Shown one piece after another: positions 19,649 to 36,252 of a DNA stretch of 38,296 bases. Where the stretch lies: NCBI GenBank assembly GCA_007571365.1, contig RKRN01000288.1:1-38296 (forward strand). The letters are read 5' to 3'. The number at the start of each line of letters is the position of its first letter. Position 1 is the stretch's first letter. The notes below the pieces were generated by a model that was not told the DNA's origin, made no database searches, and saw only the letters and a list, made by a program, of their open reading frames with translations. Source of the stretch: Candidatus Latescibacterota bacterium. Its GTDB lineage: Bacteria; Latescibacterota; UBA2968; UBA8231. The position numbers were made by a program, and so were the translations under genes.

Positions 19649-19677
19649 TTGTCCCAATCGGTTAAGCTAGCTATTAT
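19649..19677 (+). promoter_or_regulatory. Candidate sigma70-type promoter for the 11-gene envelope operon
   Basis: TTGTCC (19649-19654) and TATTAT (19672-19677) have 17-bp spacing in the AT-rich divergent gap. They would start transcription around 19684, about 20 nt before the TTG start at 19704. There is no other obvious promoter before 36252 in this gene string because gaps between genes are 41 bp or less. Confidence 0.5.
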
Positions 19678-19703: not shown

Positions 19704-21860
19704 TTGCTAAGACACTTGCCGACTCACTACCTAGACCACCTAGCCGGGCGCGATCAAGCCCTACTGGCCCCGCCCGGTACCCAGCAGCTAACCATGCGGG
19801 CGTTTTGGGTGGGAGCATTCCTCAGCTTTTTCCTCGCTGTCGGTGCTCCGTACGGCAACATGATCATCCGCGGCTCCTACATGGCCTTGGACTTCAGTAC
19901 GCCAGGGGCCATTTTTTTATTTCTCGTTCTCATTGGGCTGCTCAATGTGTTGTTCAAGGTCGCCGCTAGCCCGTCGGGCGCCGTGGTTTGGGCCTTGGTC
20001 GCGTGTTCGCTCTATGGCTTCTACTATGGTTGGATAGTTCCGCTCGATCTTTTTGCCCCCGGTTTTTTCTTTGCCACCTTCATCGTGGCCTCGTCTCTGC
20101 TCAACATGGTCTTGGTCGCTTGCGGGCGGAGTCTGGTCCTCAACCGGGCCGAGCTGATTGTCGTGTACGTCATGCTGTTGATCGTCTCGGCTCTTTGCAC
20201 TATGGGCCTGAGCGAGCAAATTCTGCCGATGATCACGGCGGTGTTTTACTTTGCCTCGCCGGAAAACAAGTGGCGGGAAATGCTCTTCCCCCATTTTTCC
20301 GCACGAGAAGTCCTAGTTGACGACGGGAGCGACAGCAAGACCTTTTACGAAGGGTTGGCACCCCAAGAGGCGATTCCCTACGCAGCCTGGGTAGAGCCTT
20401 TGTGCTGGTGGGCCGTCTTTCTCTTAGCGTTGTACGTGACCATGGTGTCGGTCGCGGTTATTATCCGCCGGCAGTGGATGGAGCGCGAGCGATTGCCCTA
20501 TCCGCTCACGCAGGTGGGCTTGGCGATGGTGCGGGGAGAGGAACGCGGGTCTAAGATCAATACCTTTTTTCGCCAACCGGCGATGTGGGCTGGTTTTATG
20601 GTGCCGATTTTTTTTGGCAGCTTGAAGGCGCTGCATCGCTACGACCCGGCTTTTCCGATCTTCGTCCTGACCAAATGGATACCCTTAGTGGGCAAGCAGA
20701 CTTTGCAAGTGACCGTCAGCTTCGCCATAGTCGGCTTTTCGTACTTCATCAATGCCAATATCGCGGCTGGAATCTGGTTCTTTCACCTGTTGGCCAAGTT
20801 TGAAAAGGAGTTCTTCGCGCTCGCTGGCGTGACGACCGAGCAGAAAGTTACCTTCGGCGTGGCCGACTTTCCCCTGATGGCCTACCAGGGGGTCGGTGCC
20901 TTGCTGGCGATGGTTGGGATTGGCTTGTGGGTGGGCCGGGAACACTTGGGCAAGGTGTGTAAAAAGGCCCTCGGCTTGGCGCCAGAGGTGGAGGATGGGG
21001 ATGAGATCATGTCGTATCGCGGGTCTTTTTTTGGCGCGGTAGGTGGGGTCTTGGTCATGTCGTGCTGGCTGTGGATCATGGGTACGCCGCTGTGGGTGGC
21101 GTTCGTTTTTGTCGTCGTGGCCTTGCTCGTTTTCCTCGGCATAACGCGCATCGTCGCCGAAGCCGGTCTAGCGGCTGTGCGAGCGCCGATGACGGCACCC
21201 GACTTGGTGATTTTGGGGTTGGGAACCGATTTGGTGACGCGGACCGGGGTATGGAACTTGTCGTTGGCCTATATGTGGGGCGCGGATGTGCGGGTGTTCG
21301 TCATGGCCACCTGTACCAACGCCCTCAAGCTCATTGAGGAGATGGAGCCGCGGCTGCGGCGGCTGGTGTTTTGGGCTATTATGCTTGCGCTCTTTATCGG
21401 TGCGCTCGGTGCGTTTTGGATGATTTTCCACATGGCCTATCAGCACGGCGGCGTGAACCTCAACGGTTGGTTTTTTAAGGGCGCACCCGAAACCGCATAT
21501 AACAACGCGCTCCGCAACCTAGAACCGACCGGCGTACATTGGCCGGGGCTGGGGTTTTTGTCCGGCGGTGCGCTCGCCATGGGGGCGATGATGTGGGCGC
21601 GGCAACGCCTGCCTTGGTGGCCGGTGCATCCCATTGGCTTTCCCATCGGGGCCAACGGCATGCTCAACTACGTGTGGTTTAGCGTGTTCTTGGCTTGGTT
21701 TATCAAGAAGCTGATCATGCGCTTCGGCGGAGTAGCGTTATATCGCCGCAGTCAGATGTTCTTTTTTGGCCTGATCTGCGGGCAGGTTTCGTGCAATGGA
21801 CTGTGGTTGATTATAGATTACTTCACCGGCAAAGTCGGTAACTCTATCTTTTGGGCATGA
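19704..21860 (+). CDS. DUF6785/DUF6784-type multi-spanning membrane protein (OPT-like)
   Basis: This 718-aa integral membrane protein has roughly a dozen or more hydrophobic segments and the family-type motif QWMERERLPYPLTQVGLAM after the first block of helices. I place it in the DUF6785/DUF6784 group of oligopeptide-transporter-like proteins; the function is unknown and transport is only suggested by the fold. The start chosen is TTG at 19704, with GGGG 8 nt upstream and a promoter just before it; ATG at 19794 (MRAFWVGAF) is the alternative and drops a polar 30-residue leader. Its TGA overlaps the ATG of the next gene (ATGA), giving translational coupling with the M28-FtsX fusion. A second, larger relative is two genes downstream, so the two may form a hetero-oligomer. 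Confidence 0.72.
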   Translation: MLRHLPTHYLDHLAGRDQALLAPPGTQQLTMRAFWVGAFLSFFLAVGAPYGNMIIRGSYMALDFSTPGAIFLFLVLIGLLNVLFKVAASPSGAVVWALVACSLYGFYYGWIVPLDLFAPGFFFATFIVASSLLNMVLVACGRSLVLNRAELIVVYVMLLIVSALCTMGLSEQILPMITAVFYFASPENKWREMLFPHFSAREVLVDDGSDSKTFYEGLAPQEAIPYAAWVEPLCWWAVFLLALYVTMVSVAVIIRRQWMERERLPYPLTQVGLAMVRGEERGSKINTFFRQPAMWAGFMVPIFFGSLKALHRYDPAFPIFVLTKWIPLVGKQTLQVTVSFAIVGFSYFINANIAAGIWFFHLLAKFEKEFFALAGVTTEQKVTFGVADFPLMAYQGVGALLAMVGIGLWVGREHLGKVCKKALGLAPEVEDGDEIMSYRGSFFGAVGGVLVMSCWLWIMGTPLWVAFVFVVVALLVFLGITRIVAEAGLAAVRAPMTAPDLVILGLGTDLVTRTGVWNLSLAYMWGADVRVFVMATCTNALKLIEEMEPRLRRLVFWAIMLALFIGALGAFWMIFHMAYQHGGVNLNGWFFKGAPETAYNNALRNLEPTGVHWPGLGFLSGGALAMGAMMWARQRLPWWPVHPIGFPIGANGMLNYVWFSVFLAWFIKKLIMRFGGVALYRRSQMFFFGLICGQVSCNGLWLIIDYFTGKVGNSIFWA

Positions 21861-24800
21861 AACACGCGGCTTACTACATCCTCTGCGTCCTCGCGCTGAC
21901 CGCCGATGGCGGTTGGGCCGGCGAGGACGGCGTGCGCCAAACCGTGGCGTATCTGTCGTCGCTCGGCTCTAGGGTCAGCGGCTATCCCGGGGCGGCCGCC
22001 GCGGCCGATTACGTCGAGCAGCGCCTGCGTGCGCTCGGCTTGCCCGAACTGACCCGCGAATCCTTTGCCATCACCGTGCCTATCGACCAAGGGGGCGAGT
22101 TGCTGCTCACCGACAGTGGGGAGCGCTATGCCCTCTATGGCCTGTGGCCCAACTTGGTTCGCACGCCGACGCTGCCCGAGTACCAAGGCGAGATGATCTA
22201 CGGCGGCGACGGCGAATGGGCCGATCTGGCGGGCTTTGCACTCGACGGCCAGATAGTACTGATGGAGTTCAACAGTTGGAGTCGGTGGTTGCAGGCCGCT
22301 TCGCTGGGCGCGCGCGCCATCGTCTTTATCGCGCCAGAGGCGACCACGACCGACCAAGCTACGGCTAAGTACTCCACGGCGCCGCTGGACATCCCGCGCT
22401 TTTGGATTGAAAGAGCCGCCGGCTTACAACTCAAGGAGCGGTTGCTCCAGCAGCCGGCTGCGGTCGTGCTCAAGGGGCGGATGGACTGGCAGCGCAAACA
22501 GGCTTGGAACATCTGGGGCCGGTTCCCGGGCACCGACCCGGCGCTGGCCGACGAGACCATTGTCATCGAAAGCTACTACGACGGCATGTCGGTGGTGCCG
22601 GCCTTGGCTCCGGCGGCCGAAGCGACCAGCGGCATTGCGGCGTTGCTGGCGCTGGCCGAGCACCTAGTGCGGCACCCGCCGCGCCGGCCGGTCGTGTTGG
22701 TGGCCACGGGCGCGCATTTCCAAGCGCAGCAGGGGATGGTCCACTTCCTCGAGCGCCACGCCCGCCTCCATCCCTACTACGCCGAGCGGATGGCCCAACC
22801 GCTCAAGCCCAAGCTCTTCATCTGCCTCGATCTGACCAGCCAGTCCGCCGGGTTGGGGATTTGGAACAATACCTTTAGCTACGACCTCAAGCGGTTTTTC
22901 GTGCCTTTTGGCCGGCGCTTTACGGCCTATGCCGAGGAGGAAGCGGCGCGGTTGGGCTTAGCGCAGGAACGGCCGCTGGCCAATGGGATCAGCCCGATTC
23001 GCGGTATGGACTGGTCGACCTTTGTGCCGGGCGGGGTCGTGGTCAGCGGGATGCAGGCCTTGTCGGCTGGGATTATCTCGCTGTCATTTGTAACCGTCAA
23101 CGACGCCCGCTACATCGTCGATACCCCGCTCGATACGCCCGAGCGGATGAACATCGACAATCTGTCGCGCCAAAGCCGCCTGCTCAACGCCATGATAGCG
23201 CGGGCCGTCGACGACGCAGACCTGTTTGCCGACTTGGAAGACTTTGGCCCGGTGCTCAAGGACAAATTGCGCTCCCTGCGGGTCAAGGTGCGGGCGTTCC
23301 CGCGCCGCAGCCAAGTGCCAGACCGCCCGATTGCCGACGCCATTGTCGTGGTGAATCCTTGGTTTAAGTCGCACAAAGGGCTCCGCCGGGCGCAGTACCA
23401 CCTCACGGATGGCCAAGGCGTTGCCGACATCGCTGGCTTGAAGACTGGCGGCTATCCGGTGGTGGCCTATCAAGTCGATCCAGCGACCGGGGCGATCGCG
23501 TTCGCGCCCGACCTGTCGGAAAGGGCGCAGAAGTTTAGCGGCGGAGTCGAGAATGGGTGGATGATCCCCAGCAGAATTCGCTGGAATACCAACGAAAAGA
23601 CCATCATCGTCTTTCCCAGTATTTCGCGGCCCTTCTACAGCATGATCGACTCGCGCTACCTGCGGTCGTTCAAGGAGATCAAAATCGTCGATCGCAGCGG
23701 CGTGGCCCCGCGGCAGTTTGGACTGGCGCGGGGATTTGACGAAGGCGAGGCCGTCGGCGTGGTGTTTGGCGCGCAGGACGCCGACGCGGACGACGGCATC
23801 AAGATGATCATTGACAACCGCTTACTCCTGCTCAACAGCGAAGGGGCCGAAGACGAGGCGCAGGCGCGCGGGCGCGGCTACGTGCTCAGTGAGGACTCGC
23901 TGATCCGCACCGGGATGCTGGCTGTCGAAGACATGTGGCAGCTCAACGAGGCGAGGCTGCGCACCTTGCGCGAGCACGCCATTGAAAATCAACGGCTAGC
24001 CCGGCTGCACCAGCGCGGCAAAGCCCTGATCGAGCAGGCGCGCCAAGCCGCAGAAGCCAAAAATTGGGAGCGCTATGTCGAGCACGTGCGGGCCGCGCTG
24101 GGCGTGACGTCGCGCGCGTACCCAGAAGTACTCCAGACGCTCAACGACGTCATCAGCGGCATGGTGTTTTTTCTCGCCTTGGTCATCCCGACGGCCTTCT
24201 TGGGCGAGCGGCTGCTGTTTGCGGCCGCTGATATTCGCCGGCAGCTAGCCGGGTTTGGCGGGTTGTTGCTGTTGATTTGGCTGGCCATCTCTCAGGTTCA
24301 TCCGGCCTTTGCCATTGCCCATCCGCTGGTGATCTTGCTGGCCTTTGCGATCATGGCGATGGCGGCGTTTGTCTTGGCGATGATCAGTGCCCGCTTCAAC
24401 CGCTATATGAGGGCCTATCAGGCGCGGGAAGCCCACGTCCACGAGACCGATATTAGCCGCGCCAGTGCCAGCTACGCGGCCTTTATGCTCGGCATTTCCA
24501 ACATGCGGCGGCGCAAGCTGCGCACCGGGCTGACCTTGCTGACTTTGGTTTTGCTCACCTTTACGGTGCTGTCTTTTACCTCGTTCAACACCCAGGTTCG
24601 CTACATGGCCTTTGCCATGGACCACGAAGGGACCTACGAGGGCGTGCTGATCCGCGACCGCAATTGGAATCAGCTAAACCGCCCCACGCTCGACTACGCC
24701 CGCTCCCACTTCGCGGCCGAGGGCGTGGTCGTGCCGCGCAACTGGTATGTCGCCTTTGACGACGAGCAGAAAAAGTACATCGAGGTCTTTGGCGATACCG

Positions 24801-26260
24801 CGGTGGTGCGGGCGACCGGGATGCTGGGGCTGATGCCGGAGGAAGTGCGCGTCACCGGCATCGATCAGGCGCTGGTGGCGGGGAGCTTCTTCGCGCGCGA
24901 GGACGAGGCATCGTGCCTGATGGCCGCGGGCATGGCCGAGGCCTTGGGCATTGGTCTGGCGGAGTTGGGCACGGCCACGGTGCGGGTGTTCGGCCGGAGT
25001 TTGGTGGTGCGGGGCGTGTTCGATCCCGATCTGTTTGAGGATATTCGCGACCTCGACGACGAGCCGCTGACGCCGGCAGACTTCCAGATGTCGAGTGCCC
25101 AAGCCCTCGGGCCGGTAGCCCAAGACGATATGAGTATCGCCGTAGATGAATCCGCGCTCGATATTCGTCCCTTCATCCACCTAGAGTCCGACAACGTGCT
25201 GGTCTTGCCCTATGGGACGCTGCGAGAGGCCGGGGGAATGCTGCGCTCGGTGGCGGTGCGGCTGGAGGACGGGGAGCGCGGACAGGAGTTGGTGGAGGAT
25301 TTTCTCCTGCGGCTGGCCATTACGCTCTTTGCCGGCCTGAAAGAGCCGGGCGCAGCCGCCATTAAGGTATTTTCCTACACCTCAATCGGGTTGACCAACG
25401 TCGAAGGCTTGGGGGCCTTGGTGATACCGATGTTCATCGCCGCGCTCATTGTGCTCAATGCGATGATGGGGGCCGTCTATGAGCGCTTCCGCGAGATCGG
25501 CATTTATTCATCGGTGGGCTTGGCGCCGCTGCACATTGCCTTGCTCTTTGTGGCTGAAGCCTGTGTCTATGCGATTATTGGCGTTACCTTGGGCTACATT
25601 CTCGGCCAGAGTTTGGGCAAAGTGCTCATTGCGCTGGACCTGCTACAGGGCATAAGCCTCAATTACTCGTCTATGGCGGCGATTGTCTCGTCGCTGATTG
25701 TGATGGCCGTGGTCTTGCTTTCGACGATATATCCGGCCAGGGTCGCCGCCCGCACGGCCGTGCCCGATACCGTGCGGCGCTGGACCCCGCCGGATCCGAG
25801 CGGGGACCGCTGGGAAATGGAATTCCCCTTTATGGTCAGCGAGGGCGAAGTGCGGGGCCTGTGTGGGTTTTTGGCCGGGTACTTCAGCGCCTATAGCGAG
25901 GAGTCCATCGGCGACTTCTACGCCGAGAAGGTCCAATTAGTCGAGGAAGCCGGCGAGCGCGGGCCGGAGTACGCGGTGCAGCTTTTGCTGTGGCTGGCGC
26001 CGTTCGACATGGGGGTGAGCCAGTTCATGCAGCTCGAATTTTTGCCCACCTCGGTCAAATCCGTCTATACCGTGGAGATTTTCATTCAGCGAATAAGCGG
26101 GCAGGACACCTTCTGGCAGCGGGTCAACTACCGATTTATCAATGGGTTGCGGAAAGAGTTCCTGCTCTGGCACACCCTCGCCGCCGAGTCGAAAGCCCAC
26201 CATCGCGCAGTCGCCGAAAAGATGTTGGCTGCGGCCGCCGAAACCGAGCACAGCGCATGA
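21857..26260 (+). CDS. M28-peptidase-like (probably inactive) / FtsX-permease fusion protein
   Basis: This 1467-aa envelope protein has a short signal or anchor (2-20), an M28-like aminopeptidase fold (about 25-450) with a PA-type insert near 105-170, a beta-rich and partly coiled middle (450-765), membrane helices (770-860), and an FtsX/MacB-type permease. The permease has its first helix after MRRRKLRTGL at 883, an extracytoplasmic part, three more helices at about 1190-1315 and a cytosolic tail to 1467. Most M28 zinc ligands are replaced: Tyr240 for His, Glu255 for the bridging Asp, Ala290-Gln291 for the Glu-Glu pair and Asp422 for the final His; Asp325 remains. It probably binds rather than cleaves peptides. 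No ABC ATPase for the permease half is nearby. ATGA overlaps join it to both DUF6785-type neighbours. Confidence 0.75.
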   Translation: MKHAAYYILCVLALTADGGWAGEDGVRQTVAYLSSLGSRVSGYPGAAAAADYVEQRLRALGLPELTRESFAITVPIDQGGELLLTDSGERYALYGLWPNLVRTPTLPEYQGEMIYGGDGEWADLAGFALDGQIVLMEFNSWSRWLQAASLGARAIVFIAPEATTTDQATAKYSTAPLDIPRFWIERAAGLQLKERLLQQPAAVVLKGRMDWQRKQAWNIWGRFPGTDPALADETIVIESYYDGMSVVPALAPAAEATSGIAALLALAEHLVRHPPRRPVVLVATGAHFQAQQGMVHFLERHARLHPYYAERMAQPLKPKLFICLDLTSQSAGLGIWNNTFSYDLKRFFVPFGRRFTAYAEEEAARLGLAQERPLANGISPIRGMDWSTFVPGGVVVSGMQALSAGIISLSFVTVNDARYIVDTPLDTPERMNIDNLSRQSRLLNAMIARAVDDADLFADLEDFGPVLKDKLRSLRVKVRAFPRRSQVPDRPIADAIVVVNPWFKSHKGLRRAQYHLTDGQGVADIAGLKTGGYPVVAYQVDPATGAIAFAPDLSERAQKFSGGVENGWMIPSRIRWNTNEKTIIVFPSISRPFYSMIDSRYLRSFKEIKIVDRSGVAPRQFGLARGFDEGEAVGVVFGAQDADADDGIKMIIDNRLLLLNSEGAEDEAQARGRGYVLSEDSLIRTGMLAVEDMWQLNEARLRTLREHAIENQRLARLHQRGKALIEQARQAAEAKNWERYVEHVRAALGVTSRAYPEVLQTLNDVISGMVFFLALVIPTAFLGERLLFAAADIRRQLAGFGGLLLLIWLAISQVHPAFAIAHPLVILLAFAIMAMAAFVLAMISARFNRYMRAYQAREAHVHETDISRASASYAAFMLGISNMRRRKLRTGLTLLTLVLLTFTVLSFTSFNTQVRYMAFAMDHEGTYEGVLIRDRNWNQLNRPTLDYARSHFAAEGVVVPRNWYVAFDDEQKKYIEVFGDTAVVRATGMLGLMPEEVRVTGIDQALVAGSFFAREDEASCLMAAGMAEALGIGLAELGTATVRVFGRSLVVRGVFDPDLFEDIRDLDDEPLTPADFQMSSAQALGPVAQDDMSIAVDESALDIRPFIHLESDNVLVLPYGTLREAGGMLRSVAVRLEDGERGQELVEDFLLRLAITLFAGLKEPGAAAIKVFSYTSIGLTNVEGLGALVIPMFIAALIVLNAMMGAVYERFREIGIYSSVGLAPLHIALLFVAEACVYAIIGVTLGYILGQSLGKVLIALDLLQGISLNYSSMAAIVSSLIVMAVVLLSTIYPARVAARTAVPDTVRRWTPPDPSGDRWEMEFPFMVSEGEVRGLCGFLAGYFSAYSEESIGDFYAEKVQLVEEAGERGPEYAVQLLLWLAPFDMGVSQFMQLEFLPTSVKSVYTVEIFIQRISGQDTFWQRVNYRFINGLRKEFLLWHTLAAESKAHHRAVAEKMLAAAAETEHSA

Positions 26261-29200
26261 ACGACAATAGCAAGAAAAGGCGTCAGGAAGCAAAAAGGCA
26301 GCGCCAGTGGGCCGAGGTCGAAGAGTACCGCGCCCTGCTCGAAGCGCCCAACCGCTTTGATGAAGGCTTCACCGTCCGCACCATTATCGGCGTGCTTTTT
26401 CTCTCGCTAATTATGACCCCCGGCGAGATGTTCCTCGGGCTATACACGGGGGGTGGCGTGGGCGCGGCCGCGCAATGGGTGACGGTGATTCTCTTTTTAG
26501 AAGTCGCCAAGCGCTCGTTTTCCTCGCTCAAGCGCCAAGAGATTTACCTGCTGGTGTACGTGGCCTCCGCCTTAATTGCCCGGGAGGAAGGCGCGTTTCT
26601 CGACTTGCTCTGGCGTCAGTATTTCGTGCGCTCAGCCGAAGCTGAGCAATTCGGCATCTCGCGCATTTTGCCCTGGTGGTGGGCGCCCTCGCCCGATTCG
26701 GAGGCCATTGCCGAGCGGACTTTTATCCACCGCGACTGGCTGGTGCCGATTCTGCTGTTGGTGGTCGGCACGATCATGGGCCGCATCGCTTGGTTTACTT
26801 CTGGCTACATGCTCTTCCGGCTCACTTCCGACCGCGAGCAATTGCCCTTTCCGACCGCGCCGATGTCGGCCTTGGCCGCCATGGCGCTGGCCGAGGACTC
26901 GGGGGCCGAGCAGGAGACGTGGAAGTGGCCGGTGTTTAGCATCGGCGCGGCTATCGGCGCGTCGTTCGGGGCGATCTATGTAGGGGTGCCGGTGGTCACC
27001 CAGCTCTGGGGTTCCAAAATAGAAATTCTGCCGATTCCCTTCTGGGATTTGACCCCTTACTTCGGCAACATCCTCCCGGCCACGCCGCTGGGGGTCGCCG
27101 TCCACTTGGGGCCGATATTCTCCGGGTTGCTCATGCCCTTCTGGTCGGTGGTGGGCTCCTTTTCCGGGGTGATGCTGCATACGGCAGTCAGCCCCTTGCT
27201 CTACGAATTGGGCTATCTGCCGCGTTGGGAAGTCGGCATGGACACCATCCGCACCCAAATAGCCACCGGGATCGACTTCTGGCGCGCCTTTTCCATTGGC
27301 ATCACCATCGCCGTGACCATCGTCAGCTTCTACCAACTCTTTAGCACCGGCCGCGAAAAGCGGGCCGAATTGCGCGAAAAGCTCCAGCTCCAGAAGGCCG
27401 ATCAGCCCGCGGTGTGCCAGCACTCGGACTGTCATCGCCCGTCCGAGGTGCGGGGATACTGCCTAAAGCATCTCGGCCGCGGCGATTTCAACTTGTGGAT
27501 CTGCGCGTCGCTGTTTTGCGTCGCCGCGATCTATCCCATCGTCTTGGCCAAGACCTTGTTTCCCACCTTGGTCAGCACGGGCCTGTTGGTGATTTTCGTG
27601 CTCATCGCCTTTGTCTATGCGCCCATCATGTCCTTTGTCAGCGCCCGGCTCGACGGCTTGGTCGGGCGGGAGATTTCGATCCCTTACGTCGATGAGGCCA
27701 TTCGCTTTATGACCGGCTTTCGCGGGGTCGAAATTTGGTTCGTGCCCTTTCCAGCCCGCAACTTCGGCGGGCATGCCGAGGGGTTTAGGGTCGTCGAGCT
27801 GACCGGGATGAAGTTTACCAGCCTGCTCAAGGCCGAGCTTTTTATGCTGCCTATTGTCTTGGTCGTGAGTATGATGTATTGGACCTTCCTCTGGCGCTTG
27901 GCTCCCATTCCCTCAGAGAGCTACCCGTACGCCCAACTCATGTGGCCGCTGCGGGCCTTTGACCAGGCACTCTACTTGTCCAGCACGATGTACAGCAAAA
28001 TGTGGCGCGCCGGGGAGGAGCTAGAAGGAGAGCTTGTGCCGCGCGGCCAAGCCGTGTGGAGCCCGAGCAATTTGCAGGACGGCCGTTGGTGGTACTGGCG
28101 GGTGCGATCCACCCGAGATTTAGGCGTCCCCGATCCGGTCAAGCGCGCCTATGGCCCTTGGTCGCAGACCGGATACTTCTACACGAGCTTCAAGGGTGGA
28201 AACGCGCCGCCGCTGCCGGAGGCTGCTGAGAGAATTGCCGCGGCCGCGAGTACTGCGTCGGATGGCCCCCAGCTTCTTTGGCCGCCCAACGGCCTAGCCC
28301 TGGCCACGCCGAATCCCAACTTCCGCGCGGCGGTCAATCTGGCCCCGGGCGATTCGCTCGACTTCTACTTTGAAGTGGATCGCCTGCCCAGCTTTGACGG
28401 CGAGTTTTTGCAGCGTTCTTCGGACCGGCCCTTGCTCTTTGAGGTCTTGTGGCGGGACATGCGCTTTACTGGCGACCGCAAGGACGACGATGGCGACCGC
28501 AATGTCGCAGCACTCGTCGCGGGCGTAGAGCCCGCCGGGCTGGGAGGCCAGCTCGGGCTGGCAGAAGGAGACCGTCTCCGCGCAGTAAACGGGGTTGAGC
28601 TCCGCGTACCCGAGTGGGACACCGAGCAAATCAACCGGTATTTTACTCAGGGCGCGGACTCGGTGTTTGCCGCTTGGGAGCGCGATGAGAAAACCATGCG
28701 CCGAGCCGCGGTACGCCGGCCGGGCGAAGTACTCGGGCTTGAGTTTGCGGCCGACACTTCATTTGTCGAAGGATGGACCGAATACGCTGCGGTGCGCGTC
28801 GCCACCGTAGCCGAAGAGGGGCTAGGCCACCGCTTGGGCTTGCAAGCCGACGACCACCTTATGACGATCAACGGCCAAAGTATTGACCAAGATACATGGC
28901 GCAGCGAGGAGGTCGTTGCCGCCTTTACGGCGGTCGTGGAGGAGACCGCGACCGCCGTAAAGGCCGAGTGGGAGCGGGATGGAGACCGCCGCGAGGGCTG
29001 GGTGGCCGACGCGTCATCGCTCCAGTTGGGTCTGACCTATCGGGCCGGGGCCGTCGAGGGCCTCGACGAAGAGTTGCTCAACAACCGCGACGACGACGGC
29101 GATGGCTTGATCGACGAAGATACGCACCACCCCCTCGACGGCGAGAAGTGGCCCATTATCCTCGGTGGTGCGGGGTTCGGCTTGGTGGCGTACTTTGCGC

Positions 29201-29457
29201 TGGCCTTTATGGGTATGCCGATTTTTCTCATCTGGGGATACGTCCAAAGCGTCAACGGCATTCCGCACTTTCTCATTCCGCAAATCATCGGTGCCCTGAT
29301 TGCCCGGCACTACTTTTGGAAGCGCTACGGCCGCCAGGAATGGCGGCGCTATGCCATGGTCTTGAGCGTGGGCTTCGGGGTTGGCATGTCGCTGATCGGC
29401 ATGTTCAGCGCGGCCTTGGCGATGATCAAAAAGGCCGTTTCTTCCTTGGCCTATTGA
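26257..29457 (+). CDS. DUF6785-type membrane protein with inserted tandem PDZ domains
   Basis: This 1066-aa protein is related to the 718-aa protein two genes upstream: it has similar N-terminal helix blocks and a similar C-terminal end (residues 966-1066), where an ARHYFWKRYG segment matches WFIKKLIMRFGG. Residues about 387-405 in a cytosolic loop form a Cys/His cluster (C-x4-C-x9-C-x2-H) like a small zinc finger. Between the last helix blocks there is an extra soluble region (about 620-960). It has a fibronectin-like beta segment, two PDZ-like domains (about 749-800 with EGDRLRAVNGVEL, and 843-905 with ADDHLMTINGQSI) and an acidic loop NNRDDDGDGLIDED (943-956) resembling a calcium-binding repeat. 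The start is ATG at 26257, overlapping the previous stop; a longer frame to 25990 lies inside the previous gene. Function is unknown; peptide or protein-terminus binding by the PDZ part is inferred. Confidence 0.72.
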   Translation: MNDNSKKRRQEAKRQRQWAEVEEYRALLEAPNRFDEGFTVRTIIGVLFLSLIMTPGEMFLGLYTGGGVGAAAQWVTVILFLEVAKRSFSSLKRQEIYLLVYVASALIAREEGAFLDLLWRQYFVRSAEAEQFGISRILPWWWAPSPDSEAIAERTFIHRDWLVPILLLVVGTIMGRIAWFTSGYMLFRLTSDREQLPFPTAPMSALAAMALAEDSGAEQETWKWPVFSIGAAIGASFGAIYVGVPVVTQLWGSKIEILPIPFWDLTPYFGNILPATPLGVAVHLGPIFSGLLMPFWSVVGSFSGVMLHTAVSPLLYELGYLPRWEVGMDTIRTQIATGIDFWRAFSIGITIAVTIVSFYQLFSTGREKRAELREKLQLQKADQPAVCQHSDCHRPSEVRGYCLKHLGRGDFNLWICASLFCVAAIYPIVLAKTLFPTLVSTGLLVIFVLIAFVYAPIMSFVSARLDGLVGREISIPYVDEAIRFMTGFRGVEIWFVPFPARNFGGHAEGFRVVELTGMKFTSLLKAELFMLPIVLVVSMMYWTFLWRLAPIPSESYPYAQLMWPLRAFDQALYLSSTMYSKMWRAGEELEGELVPRGQAVWSPSNLQDGRWWYWRVRSTRDLGVPDPVKRAYGPWSQTGYFYTSFKGGNAPPLPEAAERIAAAASTASDGPQLLWPPNGLALATPNPNFRAAVNLAPGDSLDFYFEVDRLPSFDGEFLQRSSDRPLLFEVLWRDMRFTGDRKDDDGDRNVAALVAGVEPAGLGGQLGLAEGDRLRAVNGVELRVPEWDTEQINRYFTQGADSVFAAWERDEKTMRRAAVRRPGEVLGLEFAADTSFVEGWTEYAAVRVATVAEEGLGHRLGLQADDHLMTINGQSIDQDTWRSEEVVAAFTAVVEETATAVKAEWERDGDRREGWVADASSLQLGLTYRAGAVEGLDEELLNNRDDDGDGLIDEDTHHPLDGEKWPIILGGAGFGLVAYFALAFMGMPIFLIWGYVQSVNGIPHFLIPQIIGALIARHYFWKRYGRQEWRRYAMVLSVGFGVGMSLIGMFSAALAMIKKAVSSLAY

Positions 29458-29498
29458 GGGGTGGACGAGGGCCACTATCGCCTGTATTTTCGCCGTTT

Positions 29499-29822
29499 AT
29501 GGACTTACTTGGGCGCATATTCCGCGTCGTGCGGGCGTACGCGGCGGCCCCTGAGCCACGCGATGCCTACGAGCCTTGGCCGCCGCCGGTGTCGCCGCCG
29601 GCGCCGGCCGAAGATCCAGTCCTCGCCGGGTATTACGCCAATCTGGAGCTGCCCTATGGAGCCAATTTGGCGGCGGTAAAGGCCGCGTGGAAGCGTCTGA
29701 TGAAGCAGTACCACCCCGACCGCCACGCCCGCGATCCGGCCAAGCGCGAAGTAGCCAACGCCCTGTGTGCCCAGTTGACACACGCCTATAAAGAGCTGGA
29801 AAAGTCGCTGACGACCCATTAA
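29499..29822 (+). CDS. Small J-domain (DnaJ-like) protein
   Basis: The 107-aa protein begins at ATG 29499 with a short amphipathic stretch (MDLLGRIFRVVRAYA), a Pro-rich linker, and a C-terminal J domain (about 45-105). The invariant HPD is present at residues 72-74 in KQYHPDRHA, and helices YYANLELPYGANLAAVKAAWKRL and the closing AHAYKELEKSL-like segment fit the fold. J domains recruit DnaK/Hsp70 and stimulate its ATPase. There is no Gly/Phe or zinc region, so this is a class III-type co-chaperone, possibly tethered near the membrane. It lies 41 bp after the PDZ-bearing membrane protein and 26 bp before the YjfI/YbjN-like gene. A longer in-frame extension overlaps the previous gene and is not credible. 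Confidence 0.82.
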   Translation: MDLLGRIFRVVRAYAAAPEPRDAYEPWPPPVSPPAPAEDPVLAGYYANLELPYGANLAAVKAAWKRLMKQYHPDRHARDPAKREVANALCAQLTHAYKELEKSLTTH

Positions 29823-29848
29823 CCAACATTTAGCACTGGAGGAAGCTT

Positions 29849-30241
29849 ATGGCAGACTTTGCCACTGTAAAGGAGTACGTCCTCGAGCTTGGCTTGGCCA
29901 TCGCCGAGGAAATACCCGAAGAGGAAATCATCGTTGCCAATGACGAGGAGCGGGGAGTACAAAACTTAGTTGTTGATTGCGAAGATACGGTGCTCGTAAT
30001 TGAGCAGCTTATCATTCAGGTCGCCGCGGCGGCCGCCGCGGCCTATAAGCGGATTTTGCAGATGAACCGCGACTTGGTCTTTGGGGCCTTCGTCCTCAAC
30101 GAGGAAGGCGATTTGCTGCTTTATCGCAATACGCTGGCGCTGGAGAATTTGGACTTAAACGAACTGGAAAGCACAATAAACTCCCTCAGCCTCGGCTTGG
30201 CCGAACACGGGGAGGAATTACTGGAGTTTGCCGCCAAATAG
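29849..30241 (+). CDS. YjfI/YbjN-like secretion-chaperone-fold protein
   Basis: This 130-aa, acidic, soluble protein has a beta-rich start (VQNLVVDCEDTVLVIEQLIIQ) and closing helices (NELESTINSLSLGLAEHGEEL). It resembles the YbjN / type III chaperone-like fold and the DUF2170 protein YjfI, which in E. coli precedes a PspA paralogue (yjfIJ). Here too it sits 13 bp before pspA, which supports the assignment. The core has LVFGAFVLNEEGDLLLYRNTL, typical of such small binding proteins. It starts with ATG after a strong GGAGGAAG site. Family-level recognition is moderate. The likely role is binding or regulating PspA or an envelope client. Confidence 0.6.
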   Translation: MADFATVKEYVLELGLAIAEEIPEEEIIVANDEERGVQNLVVDCEDTVLVIEQLIIQVAAAAAAAYKRILQMNRDLVFGAFVLNEEGDLLLYRNTLALENLDLNELESTINSLSLGLAEHGEELLEFAAK

Positions 30242-30254
30242 GGGAGGATAGGAC

Positions 30255-30965
30255 ATGGCAGGTATATTTCAACGTTTGTTTAAAACCGGGCAGGCTGAAG
30301 CCCACTCCTTAGTGGATAAGCTCGAAGACCCCATCAAGATGAGCGAGCAAGCGATCCGCGACTTAAAAAAGGACTTGCAGGAAAGCCTCAAGGCCCTCGC
30401 CGAGGTCAAGGCTATTTCCATAAGGCTCAGCCGCGAGTCCGAAGACCACCGGCGGCGCGCCGAAGACTACGAGCGCAAGGCCATGCTGCTGTTGCAAAAG
30501 GCCGAATCCGGCCAGATGGAGGAAGCCGAAGCCGACCGCCTGGCGCGCGAGTCGCTGACCCGCGTTGAGGAGGCCCAGAGTAGGCATGCAGAAGCCTCCC
30601 AACAGGCTCAAGCCCAACAGGCGATGGCCAACAAGCTACAGAGCAATGTCAACGATCTGAAGTCGAAAATCGCCTCGTACGAAAACGATCTGGTGACCCT
30701 CAAGGCGCGTACCAAAACCGCCAACGCCACCCGCAAAATCAACCAGCACTTGGCCAATATCGACTCCAAGGGCACCACAGCCCTGCTCGAACGGATGAAA
30801 GAAAAGGCCGAAGAGCAGGAAGCACTCGCCGAGGCTTACGGCGATATGGGGGATGCAGCGACCGCTATTGATGACGAGATCGACAAGGCCCTCGCCGACA
30901 GCAAGGGCGCCAAAGTCGATGACTCGCTGGCCCAGCTTAAGGCCAGAATGAAGATGACCCAATAA
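30255..30965 (+). CDS. pspA: PspA/IM30-family membrane-stress protein
   Basis: PspA proteins are ESCRT-III-like helical proteins that assemble on damaged inner membrane and maintain the proton gradient. The 236-aa product is almost wholly coiled coil, starts with the amphipathic helix MAGIFQRLFKTG used for membrane binding, and then has the family pattern DPIKMSEQAIRDLKKDLQESL. The extra C-terminal helix region (ATAIDDEIDKALADSKGAK) is nearer to the YjfJ paralogue group than to classical E. coli PspA, in keeping with the YjfI-like neighbour. GGAGG precedes the ATG. No pspF, pspB or pspC is present, so regulation is likely from the operon promoter at 19649-19677 instead of the enteric sigma54 system. 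Confidence 0.9.
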   Translation: MAGIFQRLFKTGQAEAHSLVDKLEDPIKMSEQAIRDLKKDLQESLKALAEVKAISIRLSRESEDHRRRAEDYERKAMLLLQKAESGQMEEAEADRLARESLTRVEEAQSRHAEASQQAQAQQAMANKLQSNVNDLKSKIASYENDLVTLKARTKTANATRKINQHLANIDSKGTTALLERMKEKAEEQEALAEAYGDMGDAATAIDDEIDKALADSKGAKVDDSLAQLKARMKMTQ

Positions 30966-30976
30966 GAGCCGCTGGG

Positions 30977-32617
30977 ATGAAAGCCCTCAGCCGCCGGCAG
31001 TTCTTAGGCGTACTCGCGGCGGCCGGTGGCTGGGCCAGCGAGTCCGACCGGCGGCTGCGGCCGATCCCCGGGCGGATCGTCAACGAGGGACCGCCGCGGG
31101 GGCATCTGCTGCGCGAGGTGCATGCTTGGGCCGACTTTGCCGCGGCCGACCGCAGGTGCGATGTCGCCATTGTCGGCGGGGGGATCTCTGGCTTGGCGGC
31201 CGCGTGGAAGTTGCGGCGATCGGGGGTGGAGCGAATTACGCTCCTCGACCTCGAAGACCAGCTGGGGGGCACCAGCCGCAGTGGCCAATGGGGCGACCGG
31301 GTGTTTCCTTGGGGCGCACACTACATCAACATCCCTCCCGCCGAAGCCGACTGCATCCACGAAATACTGCAAGATCTAGGCGTTATTGATGGCTACGACG
31401 CGGCGAATAAGCCGCTGGTTGCGGCTGGGGCGATGCTGCGCTGGCCGCACGAGCGGCTGTTCTATGGGGGGCGTTGGGTCGCTGGGCTGGATCCGTTTGC
31501 CGAGGCATCAAGCCGCGAGCGCGAAGTGCTGTTGCGCTTTGAAGACGAGATGCTGCGCTGGGCCTTACACCGCGGTCGGGACGGCCGCCGCGCCTTTGCC
31601 ATGCCCTTGCGCTACAGCACAGACGATACCAGAGTGCGACGCTTGGACCAGATCAGCATGGCCGAGTATCTCCGCGAAGAGGGTTGGCACGACGATCGAC
31701 TGCGCTGGCTTATTGACTACGCCTGCCGCGACGACTACGGCAGCACGGCCGCCCAAGTATCGGCGTGGGCCGGGATTCACTACTATGCCTGTCGGTTTTA
31801 CGACTACCGGCTGCACGAAGCCTATCCAGCGCATACGCTGACGTGGCCCGAGGGCAATGGGCATCTCGTCGCTCAACTCGCTAATAGGTTGGGAGACAGC
31901 GAGATCAAGCGACAGGCTCTAGTGGCTCGTCTAGCTACCGAGCGGTCGCAGGTGCGGTTGGGATACATCGACTTGGCGAGCGGAGAAAAACGGCAACTGA
32001 CCGCTGGGGCCGTGGTGTACGCCGGCAAGCTGCACGCGGCTCCCTATGCAATTGAGGGCCTGCCGGATGCACAGGCCAAGGCCATGGCGGCCATCGAGTA
32101 TAGCCCTTGGTTGGTGGCGGCGATTTTTCTCAAAGAGCCGCTCGCGGCCGCGCAGACGACTTGGGACAACGTCTTGTACGATAGCCCGTCGCTGGGCTAC
32201 GTGGTCGCGGACCACCAGCAGAGCCGGGGTGGTCGCGTGTTGCTGTACTATTGGCCCTTTGTCGATCAACTCGCCGAAGCCCGGCATACCTTGCTCGTGC
32301 AGGACCACGCCTTCTGGACCGCACAGATCATGGCCGATCTGCGCCGAGTCCACCCCGAACTCGACGACCTCGTCGAGCGCATCGACCTGTATCGCTGGGG
32401 GCACGGGATGATGCGGCCCAGCCCGGGAACGCTGTGGGGGCCGCTGGCCGGTTGGCGGCAGCAGCCTATGGCGCGGATATTTTTTGCCTCGTGCGATGCG
32501 ACCGGGCTGCCCCTGTGCGAAGAAGCGATCTTTGCCGGTATGTGGGCGGCGGAGCGGGCCATGGACTGCCTCGGCGTGGCGTATTCCTCCTCGCTGGGAG
32601 GGCTTGCGGATGCCTAG
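30977..32617 (+). CDS. Tat-type FAD-dependent amine-oxidase-like flavoprotein
   Basis: The 546-aa protein begins MKALSRRQFLGVLAAAGG, a twin-arginine signal (Arg6-Arg7 in SRRQFLG), so the folded flavoprotein is probably exported. The FAD-binding motif is VAIVGGGISGLAAAWKL (about residues 63-79), followed by LDLEDQLGGTSRSG, as in protoporphyrinogen-oxidase/amine-oxidase-type enzymes (NAD_binding_8). The C-terminal FAD segment is recognisable around SCDATGLPLCEEAIFAG. Its last 8 bp overlap the start of the aminopropyltransferase gene. Flavin amine oxidases of this general type can act on polyamines, so a link with the aminopropyltransferase product is suggested, but the substrate is unknown. Desaturase or protoporphyrinogen-oxidase-like activity is an alternative. 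Confidence 0.75.
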   Translation: MKALSRRQFLGVLAAAGGWASESDRRLRPIPGRIVNEGPPRGHLLREVHAWADFAAADRRCDVAIVGGGISGLAAAWKLRRSGVERITLLDLEDQLGGTSRSGQWGDRVFPWGAHYINIPPAEADCIHEILQDLGVIDGYDAANKPLVAAGAMLRWPHERLFYGGRWVAGLDPFAEASSREREVLLRFEDEMLRWALHRGRDGRRAFAMPLRYSTDDTRVRRLDQISMAEYLREEGWHDDRLRWLIDYACRDDYGSTAAQVSAWAGIHYYACRFYDYRLHEAYPAHTLTWPEGNGHLVAQLANRLGDSEIKRQALVARLATERSQVRLGYIDLASGEKRQLTAGAVVYAGKLHAAPYAIEGLPDAQAKAMAAIEYSPWLVAAIFLKEPLAAAQTTWDNVLYDSPSLGYVVADHQQSRGGRVLLYYWPFVDQLAEARHTLLVQDHAFWTAQIMADLRRVHPELDDLVERIDLYRWGHGMMRPSPGTLWGPLAGWRQQPMARIFFASCDATGLPLCEEAIFAGMWAAERAMDCLGVAYSSSLGGLADA

Positions 32618-34130
32618 GCTAGGTGCGCTGTTTTTACTGGCGGCCATTTTCGCCGCCGCCGTCTGCGCCATCGTCTATCAGCTCCTCATCGGCAGCGTGG
32701 CGTCCTACTTCCTCGGCCATAGCGTCGAGCAGTTTTCCCTGACGATCGGCTTTTTCCTCGCCGCGATGGGGCTGGGCTCTTGGCTTTCGCGCTTTGTCTC
32801 CGATCACTTGTTGTTGACGCGGCTAGCCCAGTTAGAGATTTGGCTGGGGTTTTTGGGAGGGATTTCGGTGGGTGTGCTCTACGTGCTCTACGGATACACC
32901 GACCACTTTAGGGCTGGCATGCTGGCTTTGAGCGTTGTGATTGGCGCGTTGATCGGCCTAGAAGTACCGCTGATTACCCGGCTGTTGCGCGGGCACGGTA
33001 CGCTGCGGGCGGCGTTATCAAACGTTTTATCCCTCGATTATCTGGGGGCCTTGTTGGCCTCGTTGCTCTTCCCGTATGTCCTGTTGCCCTTCCTCGGCAG
33101 TCTGCACACGGCGTTGGTCGCTGGTTTGGTCAATGCTGGCCTTGGCCTCGGGGTGGTGATCGCGTTTAAGGGGACGTTGCTAGCGCCGCGTACCTTCGGC
33201 TGGCTCGGGGCGCAAGCGCTGGTGGTTATTGCGGCACTAGGAGTACTGGCTTGGCAAGGGGAAGGGCTGCGGGCGCAGTGGGAAAGCGATCTGTACGAAG
33301 ACCGCATCGTCTACAGCGAGCAATCGACTTATCAGCAAATCGTCCTGACTCAGCGCGACGAGCATCTGCGGCTCTATCTCAACGGGCACTTGCAGTTCGC
33401 CTCCATCGACGAGCACCGCTACCACGAAGTCCTAGTCCATCCGGCGATGGCCCTGACGCCCTCCCGCGAAAGGGTCCTCATCATCGGGGGAGGGGACGGC
33501 CTGACGGCGCGCGAAGTGCTCAAATACCCGGAGGTTGAACACGTTGATCTAGTCGATCTCGACCCGGCAGTAACCCGGTTGGCCCAGCGCAATATCCACC
33601 TGACCCGGCTCAACGACAATGCCTTGAATCGCCGCCAAGTTCGCGTGGTCAACGAAGATGGCTTTGTCTTTTTGCAGCGCGCGCACGTGCCCTATGGCGC
33701 AATACTAATCGACTTGCCCGATCCCCGCGAAGAGAGCTTGGCCAAGCTCTATTCGGTCGAAGCCTATAGGCTGTGTCGCAAGGTGCTCAGCCCGCAAGGC
33801 ATCTTGGCAACCCAAGCTTCCAGCCCGTACCACGTCCGCAAGGCGTACTGGAGCATTGCCGCCGCCTTGGAGGAAGCGGGCTTTGCCGTCCACTCCTATC
33901 ACTTGCACGTGCCCTCTTTTGGCGAATGGGGATTTCACTTGGCCGGACCGGCCGGGCTAGAGCCGACCGCGGTCGATTTTGCGGTTCCCACGCGCTATCT
34001 CGACCGCCAAGTCTGGGGCGCCCTTGCGGTTTTCGACCGCGATATGAGCCGCCTGCCCGTACAGGCAAACCGACTTGATAGACCGGTGCTGGCGCGTTAT
34101 TATCGACAAGGTTGGGGTGCTCAGTTTTGA
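32610..34130 (+). CDS. Membrane-embedded polyamine aminopropyltransferase (spermidine-synthase-like)
   Basis: This 506-aa protein fuses an N-terminal block of about seven hydrophobic helices (10-225) to a spermidine-synthase domain (240-506). The enzyme part has QQIVL, NGHLQFASIDEHRYHE, the SAM-binding GGGDG at 293-297, the acidic VDLD that binds the nucleoside, and the active-site DLPDP (Asp368, Asp371). It should transfer an aminopropyl group from decarboxylated SAM to an amine at the membrane face. No SAM decarboxylase is adjacent. The start is ATG at 32610 with GGGAGG upstream, overlapping the flavoprotein stop. Such membrane-fused aminopropyltransferases are known to occur with PspA, DUF4178 and DUF350 genes, so an envelope-modifying role for the product is plausible. 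Confidence 0.87.
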   Translation: MPRLGALFLLAAIFAAAVCAIVYQLLIGSVASYFLGHSVEQFSLTIGFFLAAMGLGSWLSRFVSDHLLLTRLAQLEIWLGFLGGISVGVLYVLYGYTDHFRAGMLALSVVIGALIGLEVPLITRLLRGHGTLRAALSNVLSLDYLGALLASLLFPYVLLPFLGSLHTALVAGLVNAGLGLGVVIAFKGTLLAPRTFGWLGAQALVVIAALGVLAWQGEGLRAQWESDLYEDRIVYSEQSTYQQIVLTQRDEHLRLYLNGHLQFASIDEHRYHEVLVHPAMALTPSRERVLIIGGGDGLTAREVLKYPEVEHVDLVDLDPAVTRLAQRNIHLTRLNDNALNRRQVRVVNEDGFVFLQRAHVPYGAILIDLPDPREESLAKLYSVEAYRLCRKVLSPQGILATQASSPYHVRKAYWSIAAALEEAGFAVHSYHLHVPSFGEWGFHLAGPAGLEPTAVDFAVPTRYLDRQVWGALAVFDRDMSRLPVQANRLDRPVLARYYRQGWGAQF

Positions 34131-34143
34131 AAGGATATGCCAG

Positions 34144-34692
34144 ATGGGTTTAAGGAAATGGTTCGGTGGTCGTCAAAACGAGGACGAACCGACTTATCAG
34201 GAGTATTCGCTCAGCACTATGAAAGTGGGTTTCCTAGTCGATTACGACCTCAAAACGTGGCAAGTCACCGGCCGGGGAAGCTATGACTACGACGGCTATA
34301 CGACCGAGGAATGGGAATTGCAGGCCGAGGGTCAGGTGCGCTTCTTGGAGTGCGCCATAGAAGACGGCCAAGCCTATTGGACTTGGACACAGGCGATTGG
34401 TATCGACGAGATTGAGGGCGATATGGCCGCGGCGATTATCGCCGCTGGCGACCCGCCTGAAGTCGTGCGCTTGGCCGGCGATGAATACGTGGGAAGCACC
34501 AGCGCGGCGGGCCTGTACCGCAAAGACGGCAGCGCGGCGGAGCGCGAATTTGTCAGTTGGTCGTTTGCCGGAAAAGAAGACAAGGTGCTCTTCATCAGCC
34601 AGTGGGGCGAGCGCGATTTTGCCGCGTACGCCGGATGCTACGTCGAGGAATACCAATTCACCGACATCTTGCCGGTGGAGGAAGGAGCCTAA
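34144..34692 (+). CDS. DUF4178-family protein
   Basis: This 182-aa soluble protein has the DUF4178 pattern: the strand VGFLVDYDLKTWQVTGRGSYD, then EEWELQAEGQVRFLECAIEDGQAYWT, and a second barrel-like half ending FVSWSFAGKEDKVLFISQW. The fold is expected to be a beta barrel with no catalytic residues known. ATG 34144 follows an AAGGA site; an in-frame extension to 34075 would overlap the aminopropyltransferase gene. The neighbouring lipoprotein starts one base after its stop codon. Genomic association of DUF4178 with PspA, DUF350 and spermidine-synthase-like proteins is known; the biochemical role is not. E. coli YjfK occupies the comparable place in the yjfIJKL operon. Confidence 0.75.
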   Translation: MGLRKWFGGRQNEDEPTYQEYSLSTMKVGFLVDYDLKTWQVTGRGSYDYDGYTTEEWELQAEGQVRFLECAIEDGQAYWTWTQAIGIDEIEGDMAAAIIAAGDPPEVVRLAGDEYVGSTSAAGLYRKDGSAAEREFVSWSFAGKEDKVLFISQWGERDFAAYAGCYVEEYQFTDILPVEEGA

Positions 34693-34693
34693 A

Positions 34694-35398
34694 ATGCTTC
34701 GGCGCATGGCCTTGCTAGCCCTATTCGCGCTCGTGGCCTGTGGAGGTTCCAAAGATCCGGTGCAGGAGCTAGTGCGCGACCTCGAGCGCTATCCCGAGTA
34801 TTCTCTGATCGTCGATGATACCCGCGTCGAAGGCTCGGTTTTCCCCGACTACGCGCTGCGCTTTCAGGTGTTGACCGCTGCGGGACAGCGCGTCGCCGGC
34901 CGCGATACCATCGTCTATCAGGAGCGCCGCACGGATTGGCTGGAAGTCGGCGAAAAGGTCTTCTACCGCTACGACAACTACGTCGGCATGGTCGTGGCCT
35001 CCAAGTCGCTGGACGGCCGCCGCACCAGTACTAATCAAGCGCACCCGCCTAGCTATCAATACGTCGGCAATTCCCAGTACGGGTTTTGGGGAGCCGGCGG
35101 GTTTTGGCAATTCTACGGTCAGTACGCGCTAATGCGCGACTTAATGGGGGGGTGGAACGTGGGCCGCGGCGATTGGGAGGACTACCGCCGCAACCGAGAA
35201 CGGGGCCGCCCGTACTACGGGCCGGTAAAGGGCGGGCGGCCCGCTTTTGGATCGCGCGGCTCGCAAACCCAAAAGACGCGACCGCAATTCTACCAGCGTC
35301 AGCAAAGCCGCCGCCAAGCCTTTAGCGGCCAGGTCAAAAACCGCATGGGACGCACCACGTCTGGGTGGGGACGCGGCGCCTCGCGCGTTGGAAAATAG
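34694..35398 (+). CDS. Putative lipoprotein with Arg/Gly/Tyr-rich C-terminus
   Basis: The 234-aa product has a lipoprotein signal, MLRRMALLALFALVACGG, with lipobox LVAC and the acyl-accepting Cys at about residue 16. A roughly 100-residue folded part follows (DTRVEGSVFPDYALRFQVL, DTIVYQERRTDWLEVGEKVFYRYDNYVGMVV). The last 110 residues are rich in Trp/Tyr/Gly, then strongly basic (Arg/Lys/Gln), with no membrane helix. I do not recognise a family. The place next to DUF4178 and DUF350 genes is like that of E. coli YjfM in the yjf operon, but I see no clear homology. The basic tail could bind anionic lipid or nucleic acid at the outer face. GAAGGAG precedes the ATG. Confidence 0.65.
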   Translation: MLRRMALLALFALVACGGSKDPVQELVRDLERYPEYSLIVDDTRVEGSVFPDYALRFQVLTAAGQRVAGRDTIVYQERRTDWLEVGEKVFYRYDNYVGMVVASKSLDGRRTSTNQAHPPSYQYVGNSQYGFWGAGGFWQFYGQYALMRDLMGGWNVGRGDWEDYRRNRERGRPYYGPVKGGRPAFGSRGSQTQKTRPQFYQRQQSRRQAFSGQVKNRMGRTTSGWGRGASRVGK

Positions 35399-35409
35399 GG
35401 GGGAACGCA

Positions 35410-36252
35410 GTGGACAATATAGCGAAGATGGCTCAGTCCTTAGTCTATCTCGTAGAGGCTTTCATCCTGCTTTTTGTTGCCAAGCAGGTCTATGCCCGAG
35501 TTTTTCGCCGGGTCAATCTCAAAGACGAACTTTTTGGCCGCAACAACCACGCCCTAGCCGTTGCGATGGGCGGCTACTTCTTTGGGATTTGCTTGGCGTT
35601 AGGGGGGGCGTTGAGCGGCCCTTCGCTCGGCTGGCAAGCCGACCTGCTAGGCATCGCCCAGTACGGTCTCTTGGCGATTGTCCTGATGGGCTTCGCCGGC
35701 ATACTCTGCGAGCGGGCGCTCCTGTTCCACTTCGACAACCGCAAGGAGGTCATCGAGGATCACAATATGGGGACGGCCTTTGTCGAGGCGGGGATGCACA
35801 TTGCCAATGGCCTGATCGTGCTGGCCATTATGCTGGGGGAAGGGCCGCTGTGGAGCGGCGTGGTTTTCTGGCTGCTGGCGCAAGGGGTGCTAGTGGTGGC
35901 CGGGTTGCTCTACGAGTGGATTACCCCCCATTCGATTCACCGCGAACTAGAGCGCGACAATACGGCGGTCGGTTTGGCCTTCGGCGGCGTATTGGTGGGC
36001 ATGGGCAATATCGTCAGTATCGCCGCCGCCGGCGACTACGCCGGGTGGCAAGAAAGCCTCAAAATTTTTGGCATGGACGTGGTCTTTGGTTTTGTCGCGC
36101 TCTACGCTATCCACAAGTTGACCGATGTGCTCTTGGCCGCTGGAGTGCGCTTGGGGGCCGAACAGGTTGAGGAGCAGCCAAATGTAGGGGCTGGGCTGAT
36201 AGAAGCCTTCGGCTACGTGGGAGGATCGATCTTAATCGTCTGGATCTTCTAA
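35410..36252 (+). CDS. Tandem DUF350 (YjfL-like) membrane protein
   Basis: This 280-aa integral membrane protein contains about eight hydrophobic segments. The length is roughly twice that of E. coli YjfL (DUF350). A repeated pattern, Asn-x-Ala/Gly with small residues, occurs four times (NNHALAVAMGGY, HNMGTAFVEAGM, DNTAVGLAFGGV, PNVGAGLIEAFG), consistent with two DUF350 units each having two halves. DUF350 proteins are associated with PspA-type stress operons, and their activity is unknown. The start is GTG at 35410 behind a G-rich site; ATG at 35428 is an alternative. It ends the operon: its 3' end overlaps the convergent flippase-like gene by 21 bp. Confidence 0.78.
   Translation: MDNIAKMAQSLVYLVEAFILLFVAKQVYARVFRRVNLKDELFGRNNHALAVAMGGYFFGICLALGGALSGPSLGWQADLLGIAQYGLLAIVLMGFAGILCERALLFHFDNRKEVIEDHNMGTAFVEAGMHIANGLIVLAIMLGEGPLWSGVVFWLLAQGVLVVAGLLYEWITPHSIHRELERDNTAVGLAFGGVLVGMGNIVSIAAAGDYAGWQESLKIFGMDVVFGFVALYAIHKLTDVLLAAGVRLGAEQVEEQPNVGAGLIEAFGYVGGSILIVWIF

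What the first reader, a model, noticed from the sequence alone, without database searches (positions are those of the whole stretch)
19704..36252. An 11-gene, 16.5-kb envelope operon that puts two DUF6785-type proteins and an M28-FtsX fusion in front of a PspA/aminopropyltransferase/DUF350 module
All eleven genes are on the plus strand. Gaps are 41 bp or less, four junctions overlap or are 1 bp apart, and only one good promoter is visible (19649-19677). The second part (YjfI-like, PspA, aminopropyltransferase, DUF4178, lipoprotein, DUF350) corresponds to a known kind of membrane-stress gene set. The first part (DUF6785, pseudo-M28-FtsX, DUF6785-PDZ, J domain) is not part of any version I know. 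The joint layout suggests that the large membrane complex senses or handles envelope damage, and that PspA, the J protein and polyamine modification act as its effectors. The functional link is inference from co-directionality.
Basis: partly seen in the sequence, partly recalled or inferred. Interest (0 to 1): 0.78.

Follow-up and report, generated by a model that had tools for sequence, protein, structure and literature searches.

The report
Two stacked envelope modules, not one
A long run of eleven same-direction genes in an uncultured Latescibacterota bacterium is really two separable units set end to end, a little-studied ABC-type membrane machine and a published PspA/polyamine membrane-stress set with its own conserved promoter, so the proposed single sensor-effector operon is only partly right.

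Summary
(1) The back half is a published set: CesT/Tir-PspA dyad with 7TM-spermidine synthase, DUF350, DUF4178 and lipoprotein (Ravi et al. 2024), here plus a J protein and a Tat-type amine oxidase. (2) The J gene belongs to the back half. (3) The halves are separable. They are joined in genera g1-g4 of one Latescibacterota family; at the same site g6/g7 keep only the front three genes and two g4 genomes only the back eight. In 20/20 back modules outside the family the front trio is absent. (4) A promoter lies between the halves at 29462-29490 (TGGACG-17-TATTTT): upstream of the J gene in 13/18 loci (variant in the other 5), also where the module is unlinked, and in 0/160 upstream regions of the other genes. 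(5) The front trio belongs to an undescribed LolCDE/MacB-like ABC system: B is a degenerate M28 aminopeptidase fused to FtsX; DUF6785 has an OPT fold. B-C pairs occur across phyla; deep Latescibacterota carry A-B-C-p330-PqqD-FtsX-ATPase; the own genome has one FtsX-ATPase pair elsewhere for up to ten B copies.

The parts
19649..19677 (+). Promoter of the front unit, TTGTCC-17-TATTAT
   Evidence: Consensus scan; conserved in most genus g1 relatives
19704..21860 (+). Gene A, DUF6785/DUF6784 membrane protein, OPT-like fold by model
   Evidence: Pfam; AlphaFold2 pLDDT 89.9, pTM 0.90; Foldseek match to YS1, E 5.4e-7
21857..26260 (+). Gene B, degenerate M28 aminopeptidase-like domain fused to FtsX-type permease
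   Evidence: FtsX; PDB aminopeptidase match E 5e-16; catalytic residues replaced
26257..29457 (+). Gene C, divergent DUF6785-like membrane protein with two PDZ domains
   Evidence: PDZ; profile match to A
29462..29490 (+). Internal promoter of the back unit, TGGACG-17-TATTTT; predicted start near 29497
   Evidence: 13/18 J-gene upstream regions, 0/160 controls; 4 hits in 5.47 Mb for a stricter form
29499..29822 (+). Gene D, J-domain protein with HPD motif; belongs to the back unit
   Evidence: Pfam DnaJ; HPD in 18/18; travels with E-L
29849..30241 (+). Gene E, CesT/Tir-like (YjfI-type) chaperone
   Evidence: PF22550 E 2e-44
30255..30965 (+). Gene F, PspA
   Evidence: PF04012 E 5e-43
30977..32617 (+). 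Gene G, FAD amine oxidase-like protein with twin-arginine N-terminus
   Evidence: Pfam; RR motif in the readable orthologues
32610..34130 (+). Gene H, membrane-fused polyamine aminopropyltransferase
   Evidence: NF002956 above cut-off, E 1.7e-179
34144..34692 (+). Gene I, DUF4178
   Evidence: PF13785
34694..35398 (+). Gene K, lipoprotein
   Evidence: Conserved lipobox
35428..36252 (+). Gene L, double DUF350 (YjfL-type) membrane protein
   Evidence: PF03994, two stretches

Best explanation
Two functional units stand head to tail. The front unit (A-B-C) is one of several paralogous copies (up to ten B genes in this genome) of an undescribed LolCDE/MacB-like (type VII) ABC system. B is a permease half with a catalytically dead M28 aminopeptidase-like domain, probably outside the inner membrane, which I infer binds peptides or protein ends. 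A and C are OPT-fold-type membrane partners (shown by model for A, by profile match only for C). Energy probably comes from a shared small FtsX plus LolD-like ATPase encoded elsewhere in the genome (inferred from gene order in deeper relatives). The likely job is ATP-driven handling of envelope proteins or peptides. The back unit (D-L) is a PspA membrane-stress module of the published CesT/Tir-PspA-spermidine synthase kind: PspA and the CesT/J chaperones act at the inner face of the membrane, while the aminopropyltransferase and a probably exported amine oxidase adjust polyamines at the membrane (inference from families). The back unit has its own promoter at 29462-29490. Read-through from 19649 is possible, so partial co-expression is likely, but an obligate joint sensor-effector complex is not supported.
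For: Separability at one site; back module without the front trio in 20/20 loci outside the family; conserved promoter before D; B-C pairs with LolD-like ATPase and small FtsX in other families and phyla; single FtsX-ATPase pair in the own genome; B-A fusions; OPT fold; degenerate M28; published PSP group.
Against: The joined layout was kept across four genera and is probably ancestral to the family, with a C-D gap of about 41 bp, so some co-regulation may be selected. The internal promoter is predicted, not measured. No ATPase was found beside the family copies of the trio.
Confidence: 0.68

Rival explanations
1. One reading: one 11-gene operon in which the front membrane complex senses or handles envelope damage and PspA, J protein and polyamine enzymes are its effectors.
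For: Co-direction, short gaps, layout conserved in 12 of the 19 family genomes in which the module was found.
Against: Internal promoter; front lost with back intact in G016 and G017, back moved away in g6/g7; no PspA beside B elsewhere.
Confidence: 0.15
2. The front trio is a peptide importer: OPT-like subunits carry oligopeptides, the dead M28 domain is the receptor, and nutrient uptake rather than envelope upkeep is its role; its place beside PspA is incidental.
For: OPT fold of A; M28 aminopeptidase-like domain; PDZ in C and PqqD in the fuller operons, all peptide-binding kinds.
Against: LolCDE/MacB-type machines move cargo outward or transmit force rather than import (established knowledge); other copies lie beside parvulin/SurA-like and type IX-like secreted proteins.
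Confidence: 0.25

Closest known systems
CesT/Tir-PspA-spermidine synthase operon, second group of Ravi et al. 2024 (PMC11237479; example AAN56746.1)
   Same: E, F, H, I, K, L correspond gene for gene
   Different: J protein and twin-arginine amine oxidase added; front trio upstream in part of one family
LolCDE / MacB / FtsEX (type VII) ABC systems
   Same: FtsX permease domain in B; LolD-like ATPase and small FtsX in homologous operons
   Different: Degenerate M28 domain and DUF6785/OPT-fold subunits; no ATPase gene beside the window copy
OPT oligopeptide/metal-chelate transporters (barley YS1)
   Same: Overall fold of A by model
   Different: No significant sequence match to the PDB or to the Pfam OPT family
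M28 aminopeptidases (YwaD, 2ek8)
   Same: Fold of the N-terminal part of B by profile
   Different: Metal ligands and catalytic Glu replaced; fused to a permease

Membership tests
CesT/Tir-PspA-spermidine synthase operon (Ravi 2024 group 2) | Adjacent CesT/Tir and PspA genes | tested here: met
   E and F, 13 bp apart
CesT/Tir-PspA-spermidine synthase operon (Ravi 2024 group 2) | Spermidine synthase fused to N-terminal TM domain | tested here: met
   NF002956 over residues 6-505
CesT/Tir-PspA-spermidine synthase operon (Ravi 2024 group 2) | 8TM (double) DUF350 and DUF4178 genes | tested here: met
CesT/Tir-PspA-spermidine synthase operon (Ravi 2024 group 2) | Ctha_1186-type lipoprotein | tested here: inconclusive
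   K is a lipoprotein but no model for that domain was available
Type VII ABC system (LolCDE/MacB) | FtsX-type permease domain | tested here: met
   PF02687 E 6.7e-12; MacB/LolC/YtrF in PDB
Type VII ABC system (LolCDE/MacB) | Cognate ATPase gene in the same operon | tested here: not met
   None in the window; present in 7/27 homologous loci and as a separate pair in the own genome. Hence 'works like', not filed as a member
M28 peptidase | Metal ligands and catalytic Glu | tested here: not met
   His to Tyr in most copies, Glu-Glu to His-Phe
OPT transporter family | OPT fold | tested here: met
   Foldseek E 5.4e-7, TM 0.64 by target length; model only
OPT transporter family | Sequence match to the Pfam OPT family | tested here: not met
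   Only DUF6785/6784 hit
J-domain protein | HPD motif | tested here: met
   18/18
Single 11-gene operon | No internal promoter | tested here: not met
   Conserved element 29462-29490; transcript not measured

The most novel reading that the evidence does not exclude
DUF6785 and M28-FtsX genes form an undescribed, multi-phylum ABC machine in which one shared LolD-like ATPase and small FtsX drive many alternative pseudo-peptidase/OPT-fold heads, each handling a different class of envelope peptide or protein; in this family one head was additionally placed under joint control with a PspA stress module.
Probability: 0.3. Interest if true: 0.82.

Novelty: new variant of a known kind. Interest (0 to 1): 0.55.

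Why it matters
It corrects a tempting operon story and replaces it with two testable ones. DUF6785, with no paper in the searched library, gains a fold (OPT), a frequent gene partner (M28-FtsX) and a likely energy source (LolD-type ATPase). The published PspA-polyamine module gains two conserved additions, a J protein and a probably exported amine oxidase, and a promoter whose regulation can be tested.

Tried and rejected
J gene as part of the front unit: rejected, it accompanies E-L, also where the front genes are absent. A dedicated alternative-sigma regulon from TGGAC-N18-TATNTTCG: not supported, only 4 sites in the own genome, and the one other site examined lies before a sulfatase gene; it looks like a housekeeping-type promoter. 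ATPase beside the family paralogues of the trio: none found by motif. Structure of C: model too poor to use (pLDDT 46). PDB sequence search for A: no match. Literature on DUF6785/DUF6784: none held. The same promoter element upstream of E in the families without a J gene: not found.

Full report
What is there. The window is a whole contig (C290) of a 5.5-Mb metagenome assembly; named relatives are mostly Candidatus Latescibacterota. Family searches confirm A (DUF6785/6784), B (FtsX), C (PDZ), D (DnaJ), E (CesT_Tir_1), F (PspA), G (FAD amine oxidase), H (polyamine aminopropyltransferase, above the NCBIfam cut-off), I (DUF4178) and L (two DUF350 stretches). K has a conserved lipobox. C is a remote relative of A.

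Back half. Ravi et al. [quoted passage not shown] E, F, H, I, K and L match it. D and G are additions in this family. G keeps a twin-arginine N-terminus in the readable orthologues, most followed by a Cys, so it is probably exported (inference). In two other families of the same class the module exists without D and G, mostly as E-F-I facing H-L-K.

Are the halves linked? In the family, genera g1-g4 keep A-C followed by D-L with the same flanking genes (G001 lacks D). Two g4 genomes (L059, L060) have D-L at that very site with A-C gone. Genomes of g6 and g7 (L048-L050) have A-C at that site without D-L; where D-L is found in g6/g7 (L054-L058) it is not next to A-C. A tree of E+F+H+L places g3 with g6/g7 (support 0.99), so the joined layout is probably ancestral to the family and has since come apart, with front genes lost on two separate g4 branches (some deeper branches are weakly supported). 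E is found in 19 family genomes, and 12 of these are joined. Outside the family 0 of 20 modules carry the trio; one (L165) has a remote DUF6785 gene nearby. Because the flanking genes are equally conserved, the linkage is weak evidence of function.

Promoters. Upstream of D the element TGGACN-16..18-TANNTT occurs in 13 of 18 loci; the other five, all g4, carry TTGATN-17-TATATT by inspection. Among 160 upstream regions of the other ten genes there are none. The pattern was noticed by eye first, mainly in g1, so the more independent part of the test is g3, g6 and g7: 5 of 5, at -72 to -207 from the J-gene start as aligned, in otherwise different sequence, including unlinked modules. A stricter form occurs 4 times in the 5.5-Mb own genome and twice in a 6.3-Mb one-contig relative. 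In the window it is at 29462-29490, five bases after the stop of C, with a predicted start at about 29497.

What the front unit is. B is found in 59 of 64 Latescibacterota genomes, with ten matches in the own genome, and in all 14 DUF6785-bearing genomes tried through loci mostly labelled as other phyla. Among 27 sampled loci outside the family, C lies next to B in 21 (one with a 2-kb gap), PspA in none. A LolD-like ATPase lies in the same run in 7; L200 and L201 show A-B-C-p330-PqqD-FtsX-ATPase and L202 the same without A. The own genome has the orthologous small FtsX and LolD-like ATPase as one pair at C57. In some paralogues B and A are fused in one frame. A has a confident model whose only PDB matches at E below 0.001 are two entries of the OPT transporter YS1. 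The M28 part of B matches YwaD-type aminopeptidases but lacks the metal and catalytic residues. Other copies lie beside parvulin/SurA-like, PorV-like and type IX-like secreted proteins. I infer a LolCDE/MacB-like machine for envelope peptides or proteins; substrate and direction are unknown.

Verdict. Observation confirmed, interpretation partly supported. The array is two adjacent units with separate promoter elements, and any coupling is partial. The front system is the more novel part.

Noticed in passing
window 30977-32617: The amine oxidase gene carries a conserved twin-arginine N-terminus, most orthologues with a following Cys, suggesting a Tat-exported (lipo)protein.
   Followed up: partly
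L036 10117-11231: A 1.1-kb insert between C and D in G007, with a repeat of the C-end/D-start sequence at both ends.
   Followed up: no
L053, L062, L043: M28-FtsX and DUF6785 fused in one reading frame of about 2,100 residues, near parvulin/SurA-like or T9SS-like genes.
   Followed up: partly
L200, L201, L202, L190: Fuller operons of the front system with p330, PqqD, small FtsX and/or LolD-like ATPase genes.
   Followed up: yes
L042 8584-8686: Relative G001 (genus g2) has no J gene between C and E.
   Followed up: no
L165 111-2042: A remote DUF6785 paralogue (30% identity) beside the lipoprotein gene of a PSP module outside the family; single case.
   Followed up: no
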